A stretch of DNA of 25,857 nucleotides from a virus. The notes under the pieces are model-generated. The model ran no database searches. It was not told the DNA's origin and saw nothing but the letters and a program-made list of their open reading frames with translations. Both the position numbers and the translations under genes were made by a program. The DNA lies in the IMG/VR virus record IMGVR_UViG_3300042261_001514, positions 1 through 25,857 of that record. One strand, written 5' to 3'. Below, one piece after another: positions 2 to 22,309 of this stretch. Position 1 is the stretch's first letter, and each line of letters opens with the position of its first letter.

Positions 2-1888
2 GTGCAAAATGATGCGGCACGTAATTGGAGTCTGGACGATATCAGCATCAAAGCCGCCTCGATCCCCTGCCACTCGGACGCGGACGTGTTTGGGTCGTGG
101 ACGGAAAGCGACGGCGTATATGTCGAAACGACGGACGTGGATGCGGGAAGCATGGCTGCTAGGTTAGTGCGAACAACGGCATCAGCGAATGTGTATCAGA
201 ATGGCATTTTAACGTCTGGAAACTCGTACACCGTTTCTGTGAAGAACAAGTCTGCGGCTGGAAGTGCGGCTGTTACGATTGGTGTTGGAACGAATACGCA
301 GTCGTTTTCTTCTAACGCGACATGGACGAAGAATGAGTTTACTGGCACGTCAAATAACACGTTTGTAAAGATCGATCTCGGAGTAAACAGTTCCACGCTA
401 CTAGTTGACACCGTCTCCTGCAAATCCGCCGCCATTGCCGTGGGCAACGGACCAGCGGAAGCAGTGGCGAGAAACACCGGCAGCGGATCGAATCTCGACG
501 GTACGTTCGTGGGAGTATCGGCGAGTGGGTTGATTACGAATTACAAGTCCGATGTGCCGACGCCGTTGAAAGCACAGGGAGGATATGCGTATCAGTTTGA
601 TGGGGTGAATGACATAGTCACCTGCGCCGCGCCGACAGTAATGCGGAACGAGAATACTTGGGCAGTGTCATTTTGGGCGTCTGCATCAGCGTACATTGAC
701 GCTCAACGGTGTGCGTTCTCGCTGAACACAGGAGGGGCACTAGCCAAGTCGTTCAACTTCTTTCCGTTTGATACGTCAGGTGGAAATGGAGCGCGCGTAT
801 ACTTTGCCGGTAGTTCGCTAATAAACAATACCACACAGTCGATTGCAGACAGTGCGTGGCATCACTTTCTGTTTGTCAGTCGCTCAAGTACCGATCACGA
901 GTTGTATGTGGATGGAGCGTCTGCGGGAACGTCAATTAGCGAAGCATCACTTGATTCTGCACTCGATCAATGCAACATCGGAGGATGGAAGGTTGGCGGA
1001 ACACTGTGGTTCACTGGAAGACTCGACGACGTTCGCATCTACAACGTAGCACTCTCCCCCGCACAAATCGCAGAACTCTACGCCGGTACGGAAGCCACGG
1101 GTGCAACGCCCGTCCTTCGTATCGGATTTGACGAGGGTCCGTTTGGACAACCAAGCGATGGCGATGCGGTGTGGGGATGGGAAAGCCAGGAGGGCAATCG
1201 CTACCAGTTGGTCAACGGCACGCCCGCGAATCGAGTCGTGCATCGCCTCACGGGGATTAATGGCTACCCTGCGGAGGAAGGCGACGGCGCGACGGACATT
1301 ATGCGGGTCGCGTCTGTCACGGCAATGTCGGTCGCGACACCGACGTTTGCGGTCGTATGCAAGCCGTATGACGTGATCCTGGGAACTCCCGCGATTCAAG
1401 CGTTGATGGCAGTTCAGGACGAGGGATCGACAAACAACTTCGTCTTCTTGGGGATCGATGCGGCGGGCAAGTTCACCGTGCAGGGAAACAACGCTGGCAC
1501 AGCGTTTACGGTCACGGGTGCGTCCGTCCTTACCGATAACACCGACTACATCCTCATGGCAACGTGGGACGGGACGAACTGGCAGTTATCTATCAACGGC
1601 GTGGCGGAAACCGAGACTCGCACCGGCACGGAAGTCATCCCGGCGAGCATCACTGGACTGGACTCCACAACGCTGTTCGCGAGGAACACGAACAATATCG
1701 CGAGCAACTGGTTCAAGGGACTCATAGCGGAGCCATTTGCCGACACCTTGAGTGCAAACGAAATCAACCGCCTGATCAAGCATTGGATTCGCCGTTACGC
1801 CATCGTTGCCATCGCGGCACTGGCGATACTGACGGAGGTCGGGTCTGTGCTGCTAACCGAATCTGGGATCGAACTGTTCATCGGGTGA
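2..1888 (+). CDS. LamG-domain tail fibre / receptor-binding protein, 5' partial
   Basis: The frame is open to the left edge, so the N-terminus lies outside the window; 628 codons are visible. Residues about 25-140 look like a carbohydrate-binding beta-sandwich. Residues about 195-361 form a laminin-G/concanavalin-like domain, with YQFDGVNDIV, AWHHFLFV, ELYVDG and a closing GRLDDVRIYNVALSPAQIAELY. A second LamG-like domain covers about 430-590 (TWDGTNWQLSINGV, KGLIAEPF). The last 30 residues are hydrophobic and end LLTESGIELFIG. LamG modules are common in phage tail fibres and bind glycans or mediate trimer assembly. With the structural neighbours downstream, a host-recognition role is likely. 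Thr codons are biased to ACG (12 of the first 17), unlike most genes further right, which fits a recently exchanged module. The exact virion position is not determinable. Confidence 0.75.
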   Translation: MQNDAARNWSLDDISIKAASIPCHSDADVFGSWTESDGVYVETTDVDAGSMAARLVRTTASANVYQNGILTSGNSYTVSVKNKSAAGSAAVTIGVGTNTQSFSSNATWTKNEFTGTSNNTFVKIDLGVNSSTLLVDTVSCKSAAIAVGNGPAEAVARNTGSGSNLDGTFVGVSASGLITNYKSDVPTPLKAQGGYAYQFDGVNDIVTCAAPTVMRNENTWAVSFWASASAYIDAQRCAFSLNTGGALAKSFNFFPFDTSGGNGARVYFAGSSLINNTTQSIADSAWHHFLFVSRSSTDHELYVDGASAGTSISEASLDSALDQCNIGGWKVGGTLWFTGRLDDVRIYNVALSPAQIAELYAGTEATGATPVLRIGFDEGPFGQPSDGDAVWGWESQEGNRYQLVNGTPANRVVHRLTGINGYPAEEGDGATDIMRVASVTAMSVATPTFAVVCKPYDVILGTPAIQALMAVQDEGSTNNFVFLGIDAAGKFTVQGNNAGTAFTVTGASVLTDNTDYILMATWDGTNWQLSINGVAETETRTGTEVIPASITGLDSTTLFARNTNNIASNWFKGLIAEPFADTLSANEINRLIKHWIRRYAIVAIAALAILTEVGSVLLTESGIELFIG

Positions 1889-10299: not shown

Positions 10300-12921
10300 A
10301 TGACAAAGAAGCATTACAAACCCTCCGAACTGCTGGGTGGTCCGCGTACTGCCGACTATCTGCCGTCCTATCTCCCCAGCCATTTCTCCATTCACCGGAC
10401 CCGTCCGCCTTTCTCGTCCTTCATTATCCGCGAGATGCTGACGGACCCTCGCATCATCTTCGGACTGTGGCTCATCAAGGGTCCGATCCTCACATCCGCC
10501 AAGTTTGAAATCGAGGCACCTTCCGCCGACATCCAGAATTTCATCCAGAAAAATCTGAAACGGTTCTGGAAGAACAGTGCTTCCCGCGCTTTGAAAGCGG
10601 TGGAATGGGGTTACTCCGCTTCGGAAGTTCTCTACCGCCTGGAAGACGGTCGGGTGCATTTCGATATTCTCCGTGACTTGGAACCGCTCGACTGCCGTGC
10701 CATTACCAAGCAGGGTGAATTCCAAGGCATGACCGTGGATAACGTCCCCCAATTCAGCGATCAGGAAGCCACCACGGTTGGAGGAGGGGGCGCCCGTGGA
10801 AAAATCTTCCTGGGAGGTCCCAAAGCGTTCTGGCATGTTCACGGACGGGAGAAGCACCCCTGGTACGGTATGAGCCGTTTGTACGGATGCCACATCCCCT
10901 GGTGGGAGCAGTGGTCGGACGGCGGCTATCGCGACATCCGGCGACTCTGGTTTTACAAGAACTCCTTTGAGGGTGGCATCATCTATCACCCGCCTGGAAC
11001 GGTACGCACCAAAGAAGGCACGGTCGTCTCAAACCGGGATCTTGCCCGGGAACTTTTGGAAAAGAAGCGTGCCGGTGGAACACTTGCCCTGCCCAACACC
11101 ATGCAGGACACCAAACGGTCCTGGGAGTATGAACCTCCTTCGGCCAATGCCGTCCCGACCGGCTTGCTGGAATACGGCGACCTCCTTCGTCGTGAAGTGC
11201 TGGAAGGCATGGGTATCCCCAACGAAGTCATCGACGCGGGTGGTAATCAGGGATTCGGCAGCAGCAGCGGACGTAAAGTCCCACAACTGGCGTTCTTTTC
11301 CACGCTTCAGGAATTGGTGCAATGGCTTGTCTCCGACATCGACAAGCAGATTCTCCGTCCGCTGGTCACCATGAATTTCGGGGACGACCTCAATTACGAA
11401 ATCAACGTCCTGCCTTTGACTGACGAACTGGACGAGAACAAACCCCAGGACCAGAACCCCAATCAGCCTCAACAGGAATACGACGAGGAAGGCAATCCTA
11501 TTCCTCCAGAAGAAGGGGGTGGAGGGGGTCCTCCGGGAATGAATCAAACTTCCCAGCCTCCCGGTGGAAAGGGTTCCCCGGAGATGATGTTCCCCAATGA
11601 CCGGCAACAGGCATTCGGTTTAGAATCCCGTCGTTCCCGCGCCCTGAAACGCAAGGCACCGCTCCGTATGGCAGTTGTTGCCGGGAAGTCCGGAAGCTGG
11701 ACAACCATCGGCGGTCAATCCGGTGAAGGAGAGGACGGAGAGAAAGTCGAACACAAAGGTGGGATGCACGTTTTTGTTTCCAAAGACGGCAAAGTTTTGG
11801 CAGGAGGTCCCCGTGCATTACATGGCAAGCACATCTCTCAGGCGGGAGAAGTCCTTGACAGACTTCGTAGTCCCAAGGGACGACCTTCGGATTCCGGGAC
11901 CAAAGGTAGCCCCAAGGGAGCCCCTCGCCGTGGGGGAGCGCGCCCCCATGCGAAACCCAAGGGAGAAATGCAGGACGACGGGAAAGCCTCTGGAAAGGCC
12001 CAGGACGGCGCCAGCGGGTTTCCCTGGGAAAATGATCCAGACCCGTCTGCACCCTCGTTACCGAGCGAGGCAGACCCCATCACGGACATCCTACAGACCA
12101 TTGCCGGTAAGGACCCCACTGATCAGGAGGGTTTTCTTGAATACATGAAGGAAGCTCACAAGGAGCTTCAAAGCGAAGCCGAATTCGGCGCCAGGGCCAA
12201 AAAAGCCATGGACAAACTGGCTCAATCGGCTGGCGGTACGGAATCCTCCAAAACGGTGATGAAGAAAAAACCCATTAAGGACAAAGACACCGGAAAAGTC
12301 ACCGGCTACGAACGAGTCCCCACCAAGGTTTCTTACACCCGTTACGACCCGACCTATGCCCCGACTTTCGAGAAGGCAGTTTCCAAACTCGCCAAGGAGG
12401 TCAAAGGTCTGGACGTGGGGACTTTCAAGGACCTCGCCCGGGAGCATTGGAATACCCGCTACGCGGATCAGTACGAGCAATACAAGATGGAGATGGATAT
12501 CCGCAAGCGGTTCCATGATGCCTACGGTCTGTCCCCCATCGGTCTCCGTCGCATGGAGAATGCCGGAAAGGATTTCACCGGCAAACACAAAGGTGGTGGT
12601 AAAAGCGGCAAGGAAATCCTCCCCGGCTTCGACCGTTTCTCCCGTTCCATGGCTTCCGAATACCAGTCCTTCCGCTGGACGAATCGGGATGACGAGAAAG
12701 CTGTTGAACAGGATATGTGGGAGATGATGATTAAGGATCAGCCGGAACGTCCTATGCAGATCACCGACAAGGCATTCATGCAGGAGGTCCTGGGTGAATA
12801 CCTTTCCGGAATGGATGCACCCACGGAACCTGTTCATCTGACCCATGATCGGGTGATCCAGCGTGCCATCGACAAATGGGACAAGGACAGCGAATTCAAC
12901 CCGGGTTCCGAGAACTTCTGA
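10300..12921 (+). CDS. phage portal protein (DUF935/Mu gp29-like) with long C-terminal extension
   Basis: 873 residues. Residues 1-375 carry portal hallmarks of the gp29 type: ALKAVEWGYSASEVLYR (97-113), an FDILRDLEPLDCR turn, FWHVHGREKHPWYGMSRLYG (178-196) and IPWWEQW. Then come ALPNTM, a WEYEPP segment and GIPNEVIDAG (305-314) near the inner helix, ending in LQELVQWLVSDIDKQILRPL. Portals form the dodecameric DNA channel and tail attachment point. After a Pro/Gly/acidic linker (375-430) come about 440 extra residues. These include a WTTIGG motif (467-472), a GGMHVFVSKDGKVLAGGP element near 487-504, and a charged helical C-terminus with PGFDRFSRSMASEYQ. Ordinary gp29-like portals are near 500 residues. 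The extension could be an injected or scaffold-like domain. The ATG is preceded by GGAG. Confidence 0.75.
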   Translation: MTKKHYKPSELLGGPRTADYLPSYLPSHFSIHRTRPPFSSFIIREMLTDPRIIFGLWLIKGPILTSAKFEIEAPSADIQNFIQKNLKRFWKNSASRALKAVEWGYSASEVLYRLEDGRVHFDILRDLEPLDCRAITKQGEFQGMTVDNVPQFSDQEATTVGGGGARGKIFLGGPKAFWHVHGREKHPWYGMSRLYGCHIPWWEQWSDGGYRDIRRLWFYKNSFEGGIIYHPPGTVRTKEGTVVSNRDLARELLEKKRAGGTLALPNTMQDTKRSWEYEPPSANAVPTGLLEYGDLLRREVLEGMGIPNEVIDAGGNQGFGSSSGRKVPQLAFFSTLQELVQWLVSDIDKQILRPLVTMNFGDDLNYEINVLPLTDELDENKPQDQNPNQPQQEYDEEGNPIPPEEGGGGGPPGMNQTSQPPGGKGSPEMMFPNDRQQAFGLESRRSRALKRKAPLRMAVVAGKSGSWTTIGGQSGEGEDGEKVEHKGGMHVFVSKDGKVLAGGPRALHGKHISQAGEVLDRLRSPKGRPSDSGTKGSPKGAPRRGGARPHAKPKGEMQDDGKASGKAQDGASGFPWENDPDPSAPSLPSEADPITDILQTIAGKDPTDQEGFLEYMKEAHKELQSEAEFGARAKKAMDKLAQSAGGTESSKTVMKKKPIKDKDTGKVTGYERVPTKVSYTRYDPTYAPTFEKAVSKLAKEVKGLDVGTFKDLAREHWNTRYADQYEQYKMEMDIRKRFHDAYGLSPIGLRRMENAGKDFTGKHKGGGKSGKEILPGFDRFSRSMASEYQSFRWTNRDDEKAVEQDMWEMMIKDQPERPMQITDKAFMQEVLGEYLSGMDAPTEPVHLTHDRVIQRAIDKWDKDSEFNPGSENF

Positions 12922-12950: not shown

Positions 12951-15170
12951 ATGGCGGTCTACAGCGTCAGTTTCCAACTGGACGGCATCGATGTCATTGA
13001 CGCCAGGGACATCTTGCGTGCCTTGCGGCAATCCGGACAACGGACGGATCATGTGGAGGGTTGGGCGAATTCTGTACGGATCTCAGCAGGACCCGTGGCG
13101 GGAAAAGCCTACCTATTGCTTTCTAAGAGTGATCTTGATGATATCTACGAATCCTACAGCGTTACTTCCCTGGACGGGGTGGGTTACGTCTGTACGGCGA
13201 ATATCCACGACACGGAAACTAATGCTACGATACAGGTCTTCGGACTCTGCCCCGTCAAAATCACTTCCGTCCTGACTTCCAATGATCCCACGAACGACAA
13301 CGATAACGTCTACCTCGTGGAGTTTGCGGACGCCCGTCATGCCGCTGCCCGGAGTGCGGTGAACTATGCCTACAACATGCTTCTCCACGACCGTACCGGA
13401 GGGGTCTACATGCACACGTCGCAGGACGGTGCAGGGACTCCCTGGACGTGGGAGGAAATGCTTACCGACCTCTGGAATCTGCTTCCCGACTGCATGGGAG
13501 CTATCGACCTTACCCTCGCCACTCTTCCTTCCGATGCTCCCAAGAATTATGACTTCCAGGGCTGGAATGCCTGGGATGCCATTACCAGCGCCCTGGCGGA
13601 AATTGACCACTGGGTAGTTTCTTCTCTGGATGGAACCTTCGCGATTGAACCGCGTTCAGCTTCCATCCCCGATCCGTCTACCACCACAACGACGTGGGGT
13701 CACCGGCTGATCGACCGCAGTCACGCCAAGCAGGGTCAGGTGATCCCCGAGACCGTGACGGTTTTCTTTCCCAGAAAAGACGATTACTTCCCCACAGATG
13801 GTCTATCCGATGAGCAGACCTCCAAGGAGTATCGTCTTTCCCGGATGTTCCATGTGGTTCAGGTGGAGACCAGTGACATTCTCGCTTCTGTGGAAACGGT
13901 GCCAGGGTCGCAGCAGGTCCTGCACGCCACCATGGATGCCCTGTTCGATTCCACGGGGGCAATCACCAACGAATCCGCCTGCGAAGCCCACGCCGCTCTC
14001 AAGGCGGCGCGCTGGCTGAATTACGTTTACAAAGACCCGCTTCACGAAATCTACAACGGTGTGCTGGACATCAGCCCTTCCGGGACGCTCTCCGGAGTCA
14101 TCTGGCATGACTTAGGTACAGGACTGGTGACGGAACTGGTTTACAGTCATCACGGGTATGTGGTCCCGGCGCCCATGCACGGCAAGTTTGAGGATTACGA
14201 TTACGCCGGTCCCGCCGACATTTCCCGTCAGCACATCGACCCGGACTACTGGTGCGTAGCCCGCCTGGACAGCGAACTCTACCCGCACGGCAGTGCTTCG
14301 GCCCGGGTATGTTCCATCCAGAAAGATGGGTATGGGAATGTATCTGTTATCCCCCACAATTCCAAACCCACCACGATCTACGAAGTCCGGAACAAAGGAT
14401 TGCTCTCCGGGGATACGGTCATTGCCCACTATCACCAACAGTTGCGGGAGTGGATAACTGCTGGGGACTTGTCCTACAACATGGCTTACGATGCTCTGGC
14501 GAAGTTGGCAAGCAATATGTGCCCCGATGACGCCAGTGGCAGTCTCACCGATGTGGAGATCCTTTCGGAATACCCGTATACTATCCCTGGGGGTATCCCC
14601 ACTTCCGCATTGAATTTATTCCACCTTAGCGGACTACAGGGGTACTGGGTGTTCCTGAAGTATTGGCCCAGGATGCAGTCGTGGTTCATCGTGCAGGTTC
14701 AGCACCGGTCCTTTGACGTGCCCGTGGAGAATGAATTGACCCAGGCGGACAAGTTCCTGATGTTTTCTTCACAGGGTCAAGTTGGGGACTGCGCCATCAA
14801 GGGGCATGTTTTGGACAAGGTATCCCTGATGTCTTGTATGCAACCCGATTGGAAAGAAGAAATTCCGCTTTACCATCGCGGTTTCGTGACGGAAGTTTCC
14901 AAACAGGATGTGCAGGGCGACTGCCCAAAACTGGTCTACAAGGCTTCCACTGCCTGCCTGTTTGAGGAATCCGACGGTCAGGGTGACACGGAAACCACCA
15001 TCATGGAATTCGAGGCACAACTGATTGTGACCGGATTCTACGACACCGGAACCTGTCTGCGAGCGGTTTACCAGGGTGTCTGCGTGGCGGGTGTCAGTAC
15101 GGCACAGGCGGAACAGAATATCATCTGCGGTGTCGATTGCGAAGGTTCTAGCGGGTCCAGTGGTCAGTAA
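12951..15170 (+). CDS. large tail hub/tip-like structural protein
   Basis: 739 residues; the start follows the intergenic motif and AAGG. The N-terminal region (AVYSVSFQLDGIDVIDARDI, then a GPVAGKAYLLLSKSDLDDI strand set) and VYLVEFADARHAAARSAVN resemble, from memory, the first domain of tail proteins in planctomycete prophages. GTPWTWEEMLTDLWNLLPD and NAWDAITSALAEIDHWVVSSLDGTF suggest a gp27/hub-type beta-barrel arrangement in which a domain is placed into a ring. An ETVTVFFPRKDD strand follows, and the C-terminal 250 residues are beta-rich with dispersed cysteines. A baseplate hub or tail tip role is inferred. No enzymatic residues are evident. Confidence 0.5.
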   Translation: MAVYSVSFQLDGIDVIDARDILRALRQSGQRTDHVEGWANSVRISAGPVAGKAYLLLSKSDLDDIYESYSVTSLDGVGYVCTANIHDTETNATIQVFGLCPVKITSVLTSNDPTNDNDNVYLVEFADARHAAARSAVNYAYNMLLHDRTGGVYMHTSQDGAGTPWTWEEMLTDLWNLLPDCMGAIDLTLATLPSDAPKNYDFQGWNAWDAITSALAEIDHWVVSSLDGTFAIEPRSASIPDPSTTTTTWGHRLIDRSHAKQGQVIPETVTVFFPRKDDYFPTDGLSDEQTSKEYRLSRMFHVVQVETSDILASVETVPGSQQVLHATMDALFDSTGAITNESACEAHAALKAARWLNYVYKDPLHEIYNGVLDISPSGTLSGVIWHDLGTGLVTELVYSHHGYVVPAPMHGKFEDYDYAGPADISRQHIDPDYWCVARLDSELYPHGSASARVCSIQKDGYGNVSVIPHNSKPTTIYEVRNKGLLSGDTVIAHYHQQLREWITAGDLSYNMAYDALAKLASNMCPDDASGSLTDVEILSEYPYTIPGGIPTSALNLFHLSGLQGYWVFLKYWPRMQSWFIVQVQHRSFDVPVENELTQADKFLMFSSQGQVGDCAIKGHVLDKVSLMSCMQPDWKEEIPLYHRGFVTEVSKQDVQGDCPKLVYKASTACLFEESDGQGDTETTIMEFEAQLIVTGFYDTGTCLRAVYQGVCVAGVSTAQAEQNIICGVDCEGSSGSSGQ

Positions 15171-15172
15171 TC

Positions 15173-15718
15173 ATGACACTCCTGATTTACAAATGGAGGG
15201 GGAATTATCTTCGTCGGAATCAATTCCGAGACCGGTTCGGACTCCCAGGGTGGGCAATTCATCAGCGATGCTGCTGCAATACCTGCTGCGGACGTAATAT
15301 TCCGGGGCCTCCTCCCTACAAAGAAGGTCCGACCTACTATCCGCTGACCATGCACATCAAGATTTCCCCTCTTGGGAAATGCGCCTGTCCGGATCCACCT
15401 TTGACCTTCGATCTGGAATGGGATGGAAACCAGTGGTACAAGGCATCCGAAAGCATCGGGTACTGCCCGGGGTTCTACGAAGACCTGACTGATATCTGGC
15501 TGCAATGCAGTTCCGGGAACTGGTATGCCCATTTCAAATGGGGTACTGCCTGTTTCGACCAGATTTTCCAGTTGACCCCTGTCCTGAATTCCCAGGGTCA
15601 GTGCGATCCGTTTTCCGCCAGCAAAGAATTGACAATCACCACTACGGATCCCTACTGCTGCGGTTTCTCCACCCCTCCCATTACGGATAAACGCATTTTA
15701 GTGGAGGTATGGGAATGA
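15173..15718 (+). CDS. Cys-rich virion-associated protein, unknown function
   Basis: 181 residues, starting 2 nt after the previous stop with no strong ribosome binding site, so it is probably coupled. A tight cysteine cluster, HQRCCCNTCCGRNIPGP, sits at residues 31-47. Further cysteines occur at CACPDPP, YCPGF, LQCSSG, GTACFD, GQCDPF and YCCGF. The central part (PPLTFDLEWDGNQWYK) is beta-rich. Planctomycete phage-like regions often carry such short Cys-cluster proteins between tail hub and glycosyltransferase genes, as far as I recall. Disulfide cross-links or metal binding are possible; neither is shown. Confidence 0.5.
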   Translation: MTLLIYKWRGNYLRRNQFRDRFGLPGWAIHQRCCCNTCCGRNIPGPPPYKEGPTYYPLTMHIKISPLGKCACPDPPLTFDLEWDGNQWYKASESIGYCPGFYEDLTDIWLQCSSGNWYAHFKWGTACFDQIFQLTPVLNSQGQCDPFSASKELTITTTDPYCCGFSTPPITDKRILVEVWE

Positions 15719-16128
15719 GTGTCGATATGGATGTCCAACGGATGATGGAAGAGATGCAACAGCGTCTGGCTTCCAAAATCCCTCCTTCACCACCTCCTTC
15801 GCACGAAGCGATGACCACCCTGTTGAACCCCTGTCCGGAATTCGGTCCGGGAACAGAACTGAAACGGATCTTCAAGTGGTTCGGACAGAAGGAAGTTACC
15901 GGTTGCCGTTGCAGCGATACCGCCTGCACCATGAACCTCAAAGGTCCTGAATGGTGCCGCGAAAACATGGAATGGATCTACAACCGGATTTACATGGAAG
16001 CCGATAGCCGCAAGATCGGTTACCTGATCCGTCTGGCGAAACCCATCTTCCGCATGGCAGTGGAACAGGCGATTCTCCTAGCCATCCGTAATGCGGGATT
16101 AAATACCCGACCACTACCCACCGAGTGA
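15715..16128 (+). CDS. small protein with conserved Cys/EA-helix motif, unknown function
   Basis: 137 residues from ATG 15715. GGAGG at 15703-15707 is 7 nt upstream of this ATG, whereas the ATG at 15709 is only 1 nt away, so 15715 is chosen. It overlaps the preceding stop (ATGA). A Pro-rich N-terminal third leads to EVTGCRCSDTACTMNLKGPE and WCRENMEWIYNRIYMEADSR. This GC.C...MN..G...C..N pattern with following helix resembles small proteins or domains next to glycosyltransferases in planctomycete phage-like loci. Four cysteines could bind zinc or an iron-sulfur cluster. Function is unknown. Confidence 0.5.
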   Translation: MSVDMDVQRMMEEMQQRLASKIPPSPPPSHEAMTTLLNPCPEFGPGTELKRIFKWFGQKEVTGCRCSDTACTMNLKGPEWCRENMEWIYNRIYMEADSRKIGYLIRLAKPIFRMAVEQAILLAIRNAGLNTRPLPTE

Positions 16129-16131
16129 TTT

Positions 16132-17793
16132 ATGCCGGTAAATCTCGATGTAGAACTGATGTTGGCAAAGCAGCGTGAAACTGTCAGTCAACGCCGATAC
16201 AAGCACCTACAGGATCAAATCGACTTTCACCGAACTCTGATAGCCGACACTCTGGCACACATTCCAAGATATCCCGAAAATAAGTATGCCGGTCGGGGTA
16301 TCGTCACCATTGCCGGTGGTCAGACCTATTTTTCCGGTGGATACGTTCTCTGCAAACTATTGCGTCACCTGGGTTGCAAACTCCCGATTCAGGTTTGGTT
16401 TCTGGACCGATCCGAGATGGACCCCTACATGCAATCCCTGATCGAGGGGATTGGGCCAGACATTTCCTGTGTGGACGCCAGTGTCTTTCTTCCAGAAAAA
16501 CCACCGCATTTGGGTGGTTGGGAATGCAAAGTCTATTCCATTTTGCATTGTCCTTGGCAGGAAGTTCTCTTTCTCGATTCCGATCAGGTTCCCGTCAAAG
16601 ACCCGACTTACCTGTTTGATACACAGGAATACGAAGCAGCCGGAACTATTCTCTGGCCGGATTTCTATTCAGACGGAGGGTGGGATATTACCACCCAGGC
16701 ATTCAAGGCAGCGGGGTTGCCATTCCCTAAAGAGGGTGCCGAGTTCTACGACAAACTTCGAGACAAAATTAAAGTTCGTGGAGGTTACATTCCGGTGGAA
16801 TCCGGTCAGTTGCTGATTGACAAGAAGCGTTCTTGGACTGCGCTGCAAATCTGCAAACTGATGAACATCCATTCCAACTTCTGGTACCAGTATATTTACG
16901 GAGACAAGTCAACCTTCTACCTCGCCTGGAACCGTACACACACAACTTATGCTGTTCCACCTTCCTGCGGATGGTTGGGCAACAATGACGGCGGATGTTT
17001 CCTGCAAAAAGATTTCACCGGAGAAGTCGTCTTTCAGCATCGTTGCCAACCGGTGACCAAATGGGACCTTCTGGGATATAACAAACACCCCGAGGGTTTT
17101 GTCCATGGAAATCTCGTGGATGCCTACCTATCGGAACTGCGTCAAGCCTGGAGGGGGGAAACCCGTTACCCTGGACCTGCCTGGAAGATGTTGCGGAACC
17201 CGCAAGAGATTGGTATCTGGACCGATAATGTTCTGTTGAACACTTACCGCTTACCGGAACGCTTCCCAGGCAATTCTGTAGTTCTAGACATCGGTGGGCA
17301 TGTCGGATGCTTCGCCAGCGAGTGTTTGACTCGCGGCGCCATGCGGGTCTTCTCCGTGGAACCTGATGATTTCAATTTCCAATGCCTGTGTCAGAACATG
17401 GCGGAATGGGGGGACCGATCTGTCCGTATTCATGCTGCTGCTTTGGATGTCTTGGGACATTCCTTCATTACCCCAGGCACCCACACAGGGGAAAATTACC
17501 TCCACACATCAGGCCAGTTCTGCCTGACGATTCCATTCTGGTGGCTGATAGGACTTTGCGGTCTGAAAATCCACACCCTGAAATTGGACTGTGAAGGGTC
17601 GGAATGGGTGCTGCTTCGACAAGATTTGTCGAGAGTTCAAAATTGCGTGGGAGAATGGCATACACCTGAAATGAACCATTCGGCGGAAGAACTGCAATCT
17701 CTCTTGGAAGCCCAGGGTTTCACCACCATTGAAATCCAGCATCACCCGGAACTTCCAGGGAAACTCGGACAATGGTGGGCATCCCGCGCATAA
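16132..17793 (+). CDS. glycosyltransferase - FkbM-family methyltransferase fusion
   Basis: 553 residues in one continuous frame. Residues about 55-340 form a GT-A glycosyltransferase related to alpha-mannosyltransferases. It shows AGGQTYFSGGYVLCKLLRHLG, quoted only in part, WECKVYSILHCPWQEVLFLDSD with a DxD (D149, D151), and VESGQLLIDKKRSW. Residues about 380-553 are an FkbM-type SAM methyltransferase: VVLDIGGHVGCF (383-394, SAM-binding loop), SVEPDDFNF (409-), KLDCEGSEW (484-492) and GEWHTPE. The GT would add a sugar and the FkbM domain would O-methylate it. The target could be a virion protein or host glycan. The start ATG overlaps a TGATTTAT sequence and the ribosome binding site is weak. 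It is the last gene before the module boundary. Confidence 0.75.
   Translation: MPVNLDVELMLAKQRETVSQRRYKHLQDQIDFHRTLIADTLAHIPRYPENKYAGRGIVTIAGGQTYFSGGYVLCKLLRHLGCKLPIQVWFLDRSEMDPYMQSLIEGIGPDISCVDASVFLPEKPPHLGGWECKVYSILHCPWQEVLFLDSDQVPVKDPTYLFDTQEYEAAGTILWPDFYSDGGWDITTQAFKAAGLPFPKEGAEFYDKLRDKIKVRGGYIPVESGQLLIDKKRSWTALQICKLMNIHSNFWYQYIYGDKSTFYLAWNRTHTTYAVPPSCGWLGNNDGGCFLQKDFTGEVVFQHRCQPVTKWDLLGYNKHPEGFVHGNLVDAYLSELRQAWRGETRYPGPAWKMLRNPQEIGIWTDNVLLNTYRLPERFPGNSVVLDIGGHVGCFASECLTRGAMRVFSVEPDDFNFQCLCQNMAEWGDRSVRIHAAALDVLGHSFITPGTHTGENYLHTSGQFCLTIPFWWLIGLCGLKIHTLKLDCEGSEWVLLRQDLSRVQNCVGEWHTPEMNHSAEELQSLLEAQGFTTIEIQHHPELPGKLGQWWASRA
16488..16501 (+). repeat. TCTTCCAGAAAAA repeat, copy 2 (inside the glycosyltransferase gene)
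   Basis: TCTTCCAGAAAAAC, read in the gene as part of FLPEKP. The reading frame differs from copy 3, so protein conservation does not explain the shared sequence. Confidence 0.5.
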
Positions 17794-20366: not shown

Positions 20367-21293
20367 ATGGCATCAACCAAGAAAGTGAATAAGACGCAAA
20401 TGAAGAGGCGTCTTGGAAAGGGCTCACCGGGAAAGCAGATTCCCGAATACGAGGGAATCCCCTCGTTGGAAGACATCAACTGCCCGCCCGAGGACTTCTT
20501 CTCCTACCACCTTGCCATTTACGGAGAGAAGGGGGTAGGCAAAACTTCTCTGGCATCCCAATGGCCGAATGCTCTAACTTTCATGTTTGAGCGCGGTCGT
20601 CGTAACCTGCCCATCCGACAAATCCCTCGTCGTCTCAAGGACGGTTCCATGCAGCCTCCGTTGACGTGGAACGAGATGGATAAACCCTGCACGCCGTTCT
20701 TGCCGCTGCTGATGGAAGCAGTGGAGGACAAGAGCGTGAAAACCATCGTTCTTGACACGATTGACCGTGCCTATGAGGCATGTTTCGAGTATGCCTGCTG
20801 GGAAGAAGGAGTGTCCCATCCCAATGCTGCTTCTGAAGGTCATCAAGTCTGGCAGCGGATCAAAGACGAACTAGAACACGCATTGGCATTGGTCTCCGAT
20901 GCCGGAAAACAGTTGGTGCTGATTTCCCATGCCCGGGACAAAAAGATCATTTCCCGTCTGGGTGGTGAGTACGACATCGTTTGTGCAACCTGCACACCGA
21001 CTGCCTGGAAGGTCATTCAGACCATTTGTGATTTTGTGTTCTACTACGGATTCCACGGCAGTAACCGCGCCATGATGGTCCGTGGAAACGATCAGATCGT
21101 GTGCAGCAATCAGGTCCCCGGTCACTTTCTCGATCCCGAGGGACGACCGGTTTCCATCATTCCCATGGGTTCCAATGCCCAGGAAGCATTTCAGCAGATC
21201 CAGCTTGGGTTTGACAACAAGCTCTACGACATGGATCAGCCGGAAACCACCGCAACTACCACCAAGAAGAAAAAACGCCGTCGGGTGGAATGA
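20367..21293 (+). CDS. Sak4-like / AAA_24 nucleotide-binding recombination ATPase
   Basis: 308 residues, AGGAG upstream of the ATG. After a basic N-terminus, SYHLAIYGEKGVGKTSL holds Walker A (GEKGVGKTS, 53-61). KTIVLDTIDRAYE holds Walker B with a following Asp, and QLVLISHARDKK is a sensor-type strand. The C-terminus is a Lys/Arg tail (KKKKRRRVE). Phage proteins of this RecA-fold type (Sak4) anneal single strands and work with a neighbouring SSB and exonuclease. This context is present here, with the exonuclease before and the SSB-like gene after. A DnaB-like helicase is less likely because the protein is short and lacks the extra motifs. Confidence 0.75.
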   Translation: MASTKKVNKTQMKRRLGKGSPGKQIPEYEGIPSLEDINCPPEDFFSYHLAIYGEKGVGKTSLASQWPNALTFMFERGRRNLPIRQIPRRLKDGSMQPPLTWNEMDKPCTPFLPLLMEAVEDKSVKTIVLDTIDRAYEACFEYACWEEGVSHPNAASEGHQVWQRIKDELEHALALVSDAGKQLVLISHARDKKIISRLGGEYDIVCATCTPTAWKVIQTICDFVFYYGFHGSNRAMMVRGNDQIVCSNQVPGHFLDPEGRPVSIIPMGSNAQEAFQQIQLGFDNKLYDMDQPETTATTTKKKKRRRVE

Positions 21294-21340
21294 CCTGCGG
21301 CATTACGAACCATTTTCAACCCCACTTGAAAGGTACTGTT

Positions 21341-22309
21341 ATGGCAAAGGCCAAAGGTAAGGGTCACTCTGAGTTCCTCGCCGCTTCCAAGCGTCTTCAA
21401 TCCGCCTGGAATAAAGCCCGTAAGGTGAAGGACTCTTCGCGTCAGGACAACGCCAAGATCATCAAGGCGCTCGGTCTGAAAGACGGGGAAAGTCAGACCG
21501 TCGTCGCCCGTCTCACCCAGGTCTCCCTGGGCAAGGACAAGAAGAACAACCCCTTTGTTTCCATGTCATTGATCGGAAGTCGCGGCAAGGCGAAGGGCCT
21601 CCGTTTCGACCGCTTTCATTCTCTGGCGGACAAGAAGTTCAAAAACGGCGAATCCGTGTCGGCGGAAGAACTGATCGAACGTCTGATGATCGATCTGCAA
21701 CGTCTCGGTTACGACACCGAGGGTCTGGAATTGAACGAGGAATTCCTCGAAATCATGGCGGAACTGGGCGAGGAAAAACCGGAAGTTCAGTTGTCCGTGA
21801 AACGGACCAAGGAATATGCCAATATCTTCCTCAACAAGCGTCTGGACGACGAAGAAGGCGCCGAAGCGGATGAAGACGAAGACGAGGAAGAAGAAACCGA
21901 CGACGAAGATTCCGACGAAGAAGGAGACGATGACGCCGAAGAAGATGACGAGGAATCCGAGGAAGAAGAGTCGGACGAAGAAGATGGTGACGAACCGGAC
22001 GAAGACGAAGAATCCGAAGAGGATTCGGAAGAAGAATCCGAAGAGGATTCGGAAGAAGAGTCCGATGAGGACGAATCTGACGAAGACGACGACGAGGACG
22101 ACGAGGACGAGGGAGACGAAGCTGACGATACCGTCCCTGAGAAGGACGACGCCGTGATGTACAAACCCAAGGGCAGCAAGAAAACCCTGGAATGTCAGGT
22201 CACGACGGTCAACGTCAAGGCAAAAACGGTCTCTCTCCGTTGTCCGTCCAACGAGAGGGACTACAAGTCCGTTCCGTGGAGTGACATCGAAATCATCTAC
22301 GAAGAATGA
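21341..22309 (+). CDS. SSB-like protein with long acidic tract and C-terminal SH3-like domain
   Basis: 322 residues from ATG 21341, which has GAAAGG 7 nt upstream. An ATG at 21290 overlaps the previous stop (ATGA) and would add 17 residues; it cannot be excluded. Residues about 45-165 look like an OB-fold phage SSB (GESQTVVARLTQVSLGKDKK, PFVSMSLIG, LIERLMIDLQRLG, VQLSVKR, NIFLNKRL). Residues 169-270 are almost only Asp, Glu and Ser. Residues 271-322 (AVMYKPKGSKKTLECQVTTV, then KTVSLRC) resemble an SH3/KOW-like barrel. Classical SSBs end in a short acidic tail that recruits partners; here the acidic part is about 100 residues and internal. Neighbours (recombinase, polymerase) fit an SSB role. 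Confidence 0.55.
   Translation: MAKAKGKGHSEFLAASKRLQSAWNKARKVKDSSRQDNAKIIKALGLKDGESQTVVARLTQVSLGKDKKNNPFVSMSLIGSRGKAKGLRFDRFHSLADKKFKNGESVSAEELIERLMIDLQRLGYDTEGLELNEEFLEIMAELGEEKPEVQLSVKRTKEYANIFLNKRLDDEEGAEADEDEDEEEETDDEDSDEEGDDDAEEDDEESEEEESDEEDGDEPDEDEESEEDSEEESEEDSEEESDEDESDEDDDEDDEDEGDEADDTVPEKDDAVMYKPKGSKKTLECQVTTVNVKAKTVSLRCPSNERDYKSVPWSDIEIIYEE
22010..22057 (+). repeat. 24-nt perfect tandem duplication in the acidic tract
   Basis: Bases 22010-22033 and 22034-22057 are identical and encode ESEEDSEE twice; a degenerate third unit follows. It lies in a roughly 290-nt purine-rich stretch. Confidence 0.85.

What the first reader, a model, noticed from the sequence alone, without database searches (positions are those of the whole stretch)
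16132..17793. Glycosyltransferase fused to FkbM methyltransferase in a virion operon
One ORF carries a GT-A domain with DxD and a SAM methyltransferase of FkbM type. Such a fusion can add and O-methyl-cap a sugar in one polypeptide. It follows tail-hub and Cys-cluster genes, suggesting modification of virion proteins, the DNA-exposed surface or a host receptor glycan. This could be a camouflage or superinfection-exclusion function.
Basis: partly seen in the sequence, partly recalled or inferred. Interest (0 to 1): 0.6.

Follow-up and report, generated by a model that had tools for sequence, protein, structure and literature searches.

The report
Phage enzyme predicted to glycosylate tails
An uncultured tailed phage carries, as the last gene of its tail operon, one protein that fuses a yeast-like mannosyltransferase to a sugar-type methyltransferase, and relatives of both halves repeatedly sit beside tail proteins rich in serine-glycine, so the phage probably builds a methyl-capped sugar on its own tail tip.

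Summary
The ORF 16132-17793 (553 aa) joins a Mannosyl_trans3/GT71-like GT-A domain (aa 54-275; DSD, ESG and GDK motifs; closest solved structure yeast MNT2) to an FkbM methyltransferase (aa 383-530), with catalytic motifs intact. It is the last gene of a tight tail operon: hub, Cys-rich protein, small GCxC protein, GT-FkbM. A conserved hairpin and a promoter-like site follow. A contig about 50% identical in protein (L088) keeps the same order. About 100 viral homologues show that GT71 and FkbM were linked repeatedly: fused in at least three GT lineages, adjacent in many others. Within this phage lineage the slot behind the tail hub holds GT71s from different clades, or a GT2. Many loci carry a Ser-Gly-repeat gene directly upstream of the GT, and GT-bearing hubs often have GS runs. 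Best explanation: O-glycosylation plus O-methyl capping of Ser-Gly segments of the phage's own tail-tip proteins (0.6); acceptor, sugar and benefit are inferred. Camouflage and superinfection exclusion are untested; DNA modification has no support. Phage virion glycosylation is known; the GT71-FkbM version with Ser-Gly tail partners is a new variant. The GCxC partner family is unnamed in Pfam, PHROGs and NCBIfam.

The parts
16132..17793 (+). GT71-like glycosyltransferase fused to FkbM methyltransferase, 553 aa
16291..16956 (+). Mannosyl_trans3 (PF11051) domain, aa 54-275
   Evidence: fold match to yeast MNT2
16576..16584 (+). DSD (DxD) motif, aa 149-151; D149 and D151 in 105/105 homologues
   Evidence: part of the set was selected with a DxD pattern
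16798..16806 (+). ESG motif aa 223-225, shared with MNT2
16900..16908 (+). GDK motif aa 257-259, shared with MNT2
17278..17721 (+). FkbM methyltransferase domain, aa 383-530
17281..17307 (+). SAM-binding motif VLDIGGHVG, aa 384-392; G388, G392, E410, D486 and E488 invariant in the aligned family, D386 in 29/30
15709..16128 (+). small GCxC..MN..G..WC protein ('cysB'), overlaps the gene before it and ends 3 nt before the GT gene; family found directly upstream of GT71 genes in many viral loci
   Evidence: no Pfam, PHROGs or NCBIfam match
15173..15718 (+). Cys-rich protein ('cysA'), between hub and GT; candidate tail-tip protein and acceptor
   Evidence: homologue in L088; other Cys-rich genes at the same place in L147, L075, L013 and L089
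12951..15170 (+). tail hub protein
   Evidence: predicted fold matches MuSo2 43-kDa tail protein, phage Milano baseplate and contractile-injection hubs
15144..15164 (+). GSSGSSG at the extreme C-terminus of the hub; candidate acceptor
   Evidence: GS runs in GT-bearing relatives' hubs
10300..12921 (+). Mu-type portal protein, upstream in the same gene run
   Evidence: PF06074
17797..17822 (+). hairpin right after the GT-FkbM stop codon, conserved at the same place in L088
17893..17920 (+). promoter-like TTGACG-16-TATAAT ahead of the next gene block
   Evidence: consensus match only; the number of such sites in the region is near chance

Best explanation
A bifunctional enzyme, made together with the tail proteins, that decorates the phage's own tail tip. 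The GT-A half (GT71-like) moves a sugar, probably mannose from GDP-mannose with a divalent metal bound by DSD, onto serine in Ser-Gly segments (the hub C-terminus, possibly the neighbouring Cys-rich protein) or onto a first sugar already there. The FkbM half then O-methylates the added sugar, capping it. Shown: domain identity, motif conservation, operon position, hub identity by predicted fold, recurrent GT71-FkbM linkage, statistical proximity of Ser-Gly genes to GT71 genes. Inferred: sugar donor, acceptor residues, order of the two steps, and the benefit (protease or defence shielding, or tuned receptor binding).
For: Domains and motifs; MNT2 is best fold and best profile match in the PDB with aligned DSD/ESG/GDK. 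Tight gene run hub-cysA-cysB-GT/FkbM with 2-3 nt gaps or overlap, then hairpin and promoter-like site. Same order in L088 at about 50% identity, like the portal (49%) and polymerase (50%), so it behaves as a core gene and not a recent pick-up. The slot behind the hub holds GT71s of different tree clades (window/L088/L014; L147 and L075; L013; L039) or a GT2 in L150. GT71-FkbM linkage: fused in window, L088, L014, L008, L118; adjacent in many others; one single fused clade rejected, AU p 4e-8, group named after seeing the tree. Ser-Gly runs: 8 of 16 GT clusters that have one anywhere have it within 1 kb upstream on the same strand, 1.1 expected, p 3e-6; GS runs in hubs of window, L088, L089 and L147 and in few GT-less hubs. 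L014 adds a sulfotransferase domain in the same polypeptide, as a glycan-building enzyme would.
Against: No biochemical or mass-spectrometry data. The window's own Ser-Gly segment is only 7 residues. GS runs can be plain flexible linkers or collagen-like stalks. The FkbM versus Ser-Gly association (Fisher p 0.002 on 70% clusters) is not significant once tree relatedness is allowed for (few pairs). L013, L075 and L039 have a GT near the hub but no clear GS run in the hub sequence held. GT71-FkbM also occurs in a Planctomycetota chromosome (L118), where the target is unlikely to be a phage tail. Some PF11051 homologues were chosen with a DxD pattern, which inflates that motif's conservation.
Confidence: 0.6

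Rival explanations
1. It modifies a host surface glycan or lipid-linked sugar, changing the receptor and blocking superinfection (serotype-conversion-like).
For: GT71 enzymes extend glycans in yeast; FkbM enzymes often cap surface sugars (general knowledge); GT71-like genes occur in Verrucomicrobia and Planctomycetota genomes.
Against: Last gene of the tail operon, beside the hub and Cys-rich proteins, not in an early or lysogeny block; no GtrA/GtrB-like or other membrane partner in the Pfam scans of neighbours.
Confidence: 0.15
2. It extends and methylates a sugar that a host or other phage enzyme first places on the tail protein, so it is a second-step enzyme, not the initiating one.
For: Yeast GT71 enzymes (MNN1/MNT2) extend existing O-mannose; other GT domains co-occur in relatives (GT2 in L042, GT34 and Anp1-type matches).
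Against: No second GT recognised in the about 35 kb seen of this phage, although the genome is incomplete.
Confidence: 0.15
3. It glycosylates and methylates phage DNA bases (hypermodification against restriction).
For: Phage-encoded GTs that modify DNA are known (Pyle et al. 2024, cited in PMC12619734).
Against: No thymidylate synthase, hydroxymethylase or TET/JBP-like partner in Pfam scans of about 35 kb (incomplete genome); the gene is in the structural operon; the fold is that of a protein/glycan mannosyltransferase.
Confidence: 0.04
4. A decayed or neutral pick-up with no current role.
For: No match in isolate phages; known from metagenomic contigs only.
Against: Intact catalytic residues in both halves, core-gene-like divergence with conserved order in L088.
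Confidence: 0.03

Closest known systems
Yeast MNT2 / MNN1 family alpha-1,3-mannosyltransferases (CAZy GT71; PF11051)
   Same: Best PDB fold match (E 6e-12) and best profile match (E 5e-7); DSD, ESG and GDK motifs align
   Different: Yeast enzymes are Golgi membrane proteins extending O-mannose chains; here a phage protein fused to a methyltransferase; about 14% identity; donor unproven
FkbM family SAM methyltransferases (TIGR01444, PF05050)
   Same: Over the TIGR01444 cut-off; conserved glycine-rich SAM motif, E410 and KxDxEG motif
   Different: Just below the PF05050 cut-off; fused behind a GT71; substrate unknown
Mycobacteriophage virion glycosylation (Che8, Corndog, Myrna; Freeman et al. 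2023, as described in PMC12363180 and PMC12619734)
   Same: Phage-encoded GTs; glycans reported at C-termini of virion subunits, comparable to the C-terminal GS tail here
   Different: There capsid and tail-tube subunits; here the linked genes are a tail hub and Cys-rich proteins; GT71 plus FkbM in one polypeptide; glycans here not demonstrated
Streptococcal serine-rich repeat glycoprotein loci (PMC7661464)
   Same: Ser-rich repeat stalk protein encoded beside its own GTs
   Different: There a cell-wall adhesin with accessory Sec export and LPxTG anchor; here phage tail genes; used only as an analogy
Uncultured Caudovirales and giant-virus GT/FkbM proteins (e.g. A0A6J5NND2; Catovirus 'Glycosyltransferase and methyltransferase domain protein')
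   Same: A0A6J5NND2 is the best viral fold match, aligned over 583 columns
   Different: Distant (18% identity); gene context and function not examined here

Membership tests
PF11051 Mannosyl_trans3 / GT71-like | Curated sequence cut-off (22 bits) | tested here: met
   108.5 bits
PF11051 Mannosyl_trans3 / GT71-like | GT-A fold with DxD and the ESG/GDK motifs of MNT2 | tested here: met
PF11051 Mannosyl_trans3 / GT71-like | Alpha-mannosyltransferase activity with GDP-mannose | not testable with these tools
   needs an enzyme assay
FkbM methyltransferase | TIGR01444 curated cut-off (37.7 bits) | tested here: met
   38.4 bits
FkbM methyltransferase | PF05050 gathering cut-off (22.7 bits) | tested here: not met
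   21.3 bits; narrow miss; other fused members reach E 6e-15
FkbM methyltransferase | SAM-binding motif and conserved acidic residues | tested here: met
Phage-encoded virion glycosylation system | GT encoded within the structural operon | tested here: met
Phage-encoded virion glycosylation system | Glycan present on a virion protein | not testable with these tools
   needs glycoproteomics
Phage-encoded virion glycosylation system | Ser/Thr-rich acceptor segment in a linked virion protein | tested here: inconclusive
   7-residue GSSGSSG in the window's hub; strong in relatives
Serotype-conversion Gtr systems | GtrA/GtrB membrane partners next to the GT | tested here: not met
   none in Pfam scans of neighbours
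DNA-modifying phage GTs | Base hydroxylase/hydroxymethylase partner | tested here: inconclusive
   none in about 35 kb; genome incomplete
Serine-rich repeat glycoprotein locus | Accessory Sec (SecA2/SecY2) genes and LPxTG anchor | not tested
   not expected for a phage tail; compared only as an analogy

The most novel reading that the evidence does not exclude
A widespread, so far undescribed viral glycoprotein module: a Ser-Gly-repeat tail protein, a small GCxC partner protein of an unnamed family, a GT71 mannosyltransferase and an FkbM (sometimes also sulfotransferase) capping enzyme, assembled repeatedly and sometimes fused, that gives tails of uncultured phages (perhaps of Planctomycetota) a capped glycan coat.
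Probability: 0.35. Interest if true: 0.7.

Novelty: new variant of a known kind. Interest (0 to 1): 0.52.

Why it matters
If true, it extends phage-encoded virion glycosylation from a few mycobacteriophages to a broad set of uncultured environmental phages, names the enzyme type (GT71 plus FkbM), and gives a concrete acceptor hypothesis (Ser-Gly segments of tail hubs and tail fibres) that simple co-expression and mass spectrometry can test. It also points to an unnamed small protein family that travels with these glycosyltransferases.

Tried and rejected
Two mis-spaced DNA patterns brought unrelated contigs; corrected. tblastn of the whole protein against isolate phages: no match; plasmids: one weak FkbM-only match. 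tblastn of the hub against isolate phages: none. Host inference: the hub profile found 2 weak, partial matches in 392 Planctomycetota genomes, 0 in 388 genomes of L115's phylum (a Verrucomicrobia MAG), 0 in 398 of L123's phylum (Bradyrhizobium); only a hint. PF11051 is rare in Planctomycetota (3 of 392, one of them the centre genome itself), so the GT is not a standard host gene. The FkbM/Ser-Gly correlation does not survive a tree-aware paired test. PHROG 'tail fiber' matches of the Ser-Gly proteins lie largely in the low-complexity stretch and are weak evidence. Literature searches for GT71 or FkbM in phage virions found no precedent in the held library; the main mycobacteriophage paper is not held and is cited through PMC12363180 and PMC12619734. 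DNA modification was considered and set aside for lack of partner genes.

Full report
What is there. The window is a 25,857-bp virus record. ORF 16132-17793 encodes 553 aa. Residues 54-275 match PF11051 Mannosyl_trans3 at 108.5 bits, far above the cut-off of 22; residues 383-530 match FkbM methyltransferases (TIGR01444 38.4 bits, cut-off 37.7; PF05050 21.3 bits, cut-off 22.7). The AlphaFold2 model has mean pLDDT 88.6, two confident domains and a flexible linker near 350. Its best solved neighbour is yeast MNT2, an alpha-1,3-mannosyltransferase solved with Mn and GDP-mannose (E 6e-12); a profile search finds MNT2 at E 5e-7 with DSD, ESG and GDK aligned. Catalytic-type residues are conserved across 105 GT and 30 methyltransferase rows (part of the GT set was picked with a DxD pattern, so the DxD count is biased; the ESG, GDK and His303 counts are not).

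Same virus, second contig. IMGVR_UViG_3300047491_001112 overlaps the window over 18,886 bp at 100% and continues past its right end. Pfam scans of the window and of that extension show a Mu-type portal, PD-(D/E)XK nuclease, AAA ATPase, DNA polymerase A and a primase-like protein, and no DNA-base-modification or serotype-conversion partner. The genome is not complete.

Operon. The genes hub (12951-15170), Cys-rich cysA (15173-15718), cysB (15709-16128) and GT-FkbM (16132-17793) are packed with 2-3 nt gaps or overlap. The hub's predicted fold, of modest confidence overall (pLDDT 54), matches tail hubs: contractile-injection spikes, the MuSo2 43-kDa tail protein, phage Milano baseplate. Right after the GT-FkbM stop lies a hairpin (A-tract, CCCGG...CCGGG; RNA fold -20 kcal/mol for the region, z -3.0) conserved at the same place in L088, then a promoter-like TTGACG-16-TATAAT before the next gene. 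The gene therefore looks like the end of the virion operon. The hairpin has its T-run on the minus strand, so whether it ends plus-strand transcription is not shown.

Relatives. A motif scan of IMG/VR and alignment-guided scans gave about 100 viral loci with GT71-like proteins at 21-51% identity. The closest, L017/L088 (57.6-kb contig), has the same fusion (50% GT, 51% methyltransferase) in the same order, and the neighbouring core genes are 34-66% identical. L014/L089 has GT71-FkbM plus a C-terminal sulfotransferase domain. Separate FkbM genes sit beside GT71 genes in many other loci. In a maximum-likelihood tree the fused proteins fall in three places, {window, L088, L014}, L008 among unfused L081 and L044, and the Planctomycetota chromosomal L118; holding them as one clade is rejected (AU p 4e-8, group chosen after the tree was seen). 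Repeated linkage is good evidence that the two activities act on one product.

The slot behind the hub. Window, L088, L147/L148, L142-L146, L149-L151, L131/L132 and L135-L138 share portal, hub or other core genes. Behind the hub lie: cysA-cysB-GT/FkbM (window, L088); a Cys-rich gene then GT71 (L147, L075); a Cys-rich gene, GT71, FkbM (L013); a Cys-rich gene then GT/FkbM/sulfotransferase (L089); a GT2 with a cysB-like domain (L150); or no GT (L132, L135, L137, L144, L145). The GT71s in this slot come from different tree clades, so the position seems to have been filled more than once.

Candidate acceptor. Of 107 GT loci, 36 have a same-strand Ser-Gly run of at least 12 residues ending within 3 kb upstream, some over 400 residues long. 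Counting one per 70%-identity cluster, 8 of 16 clusters with any such run have it within 1 kb upstream, against 1.1 expected (p 3e-6). In the window's own lineage, GS runs occur in the hubs of window (GSSGSSG at the C-terminus), L088, L089 and L147, and are mostly absent from GT-less hubs. The link of Ser-Gly runs to FkbM in particular is Fisher p 0.002 but not significant in a tree-aware test. The cysB-like family sits directly upstream of GT71 genes in many loci and matches nothing in Pfam, PHROGs or NCBIfam.

Reading. The simplest account is that the enzyme adds a sugar to Ser-Gly segments of tail-tip proteins and caps it with a methyl group. The fold and family point to mannose, but donor and acceptor are inferred. 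Phage virion glycosylation has been reported for mycobacteriophages, with glycans at C-termini of capsid and tail-tube subunits (PMC12619734, PMC12363180; the primary paper is not held). Streptococcal serine-rich repeat loci are a useful analogy for Ser-rich stalks encoded beside their GTs (PMC7661464), not a family claim.

Host. Hub homologues were found, weakly, in 2 of 392 Planctomycetota genomes and none in 388 and 398 genomes of two other phyla. That is a hint toward Planctomycetota, not an assignment.

Noticed in passing
window 15709-16128; L015, L032, L043, L058, L064, L073, L088, L093-L106, L146, L150: Small GCxC..MN..G..WC family with no match in Pfam, PHROGs or NCBIfam, repeatedly next to (or fused to) glycosyltransferases.
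   Followed up: partly
L091, L093, L096, L103, L106-L113 and others, immediately upstream of the GT71 gene: Very long Ser-Gly repeat proteins (up to 416 residues of S/G run); in L091, L095, L107, L108, L110 and L113 the repeat follows N-terminal repeats of the type 'RYLxRxxGxxxxxPVYAxxC'.
   Followed up: partly
L014:3496-6726 (L089): GT71, FkbM and a sulfotransferase domain in one 1077-aa phage protein with an N-terminal Cys cluster.
   Followed up: partly
L118:6614-8626 (Planctomycetota MAG contig): GT71-FkbM fusion in what looks like chromosomal DNA, away from recognisable phage genes.
   Followed up: partly
window 10300-12921: Portal protein carries an extra C-terminal region with a HKGGMxVxxSKDGKVLAGGPRALxGKHIS motif conserved in L088.
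   Followed up: no
window 2-1888: Laminin-G-like (concanavalin A-like) domains near the left end of the window, in the virion gene block.
   Followed up: no
window 21290-22309: Protein with a very acidic Asp/Glu-rich stretch between the AAA and polymerase genes; its homologue in L088 (13547-14626) aligns on both sides of the stretch.
   Followed up: no
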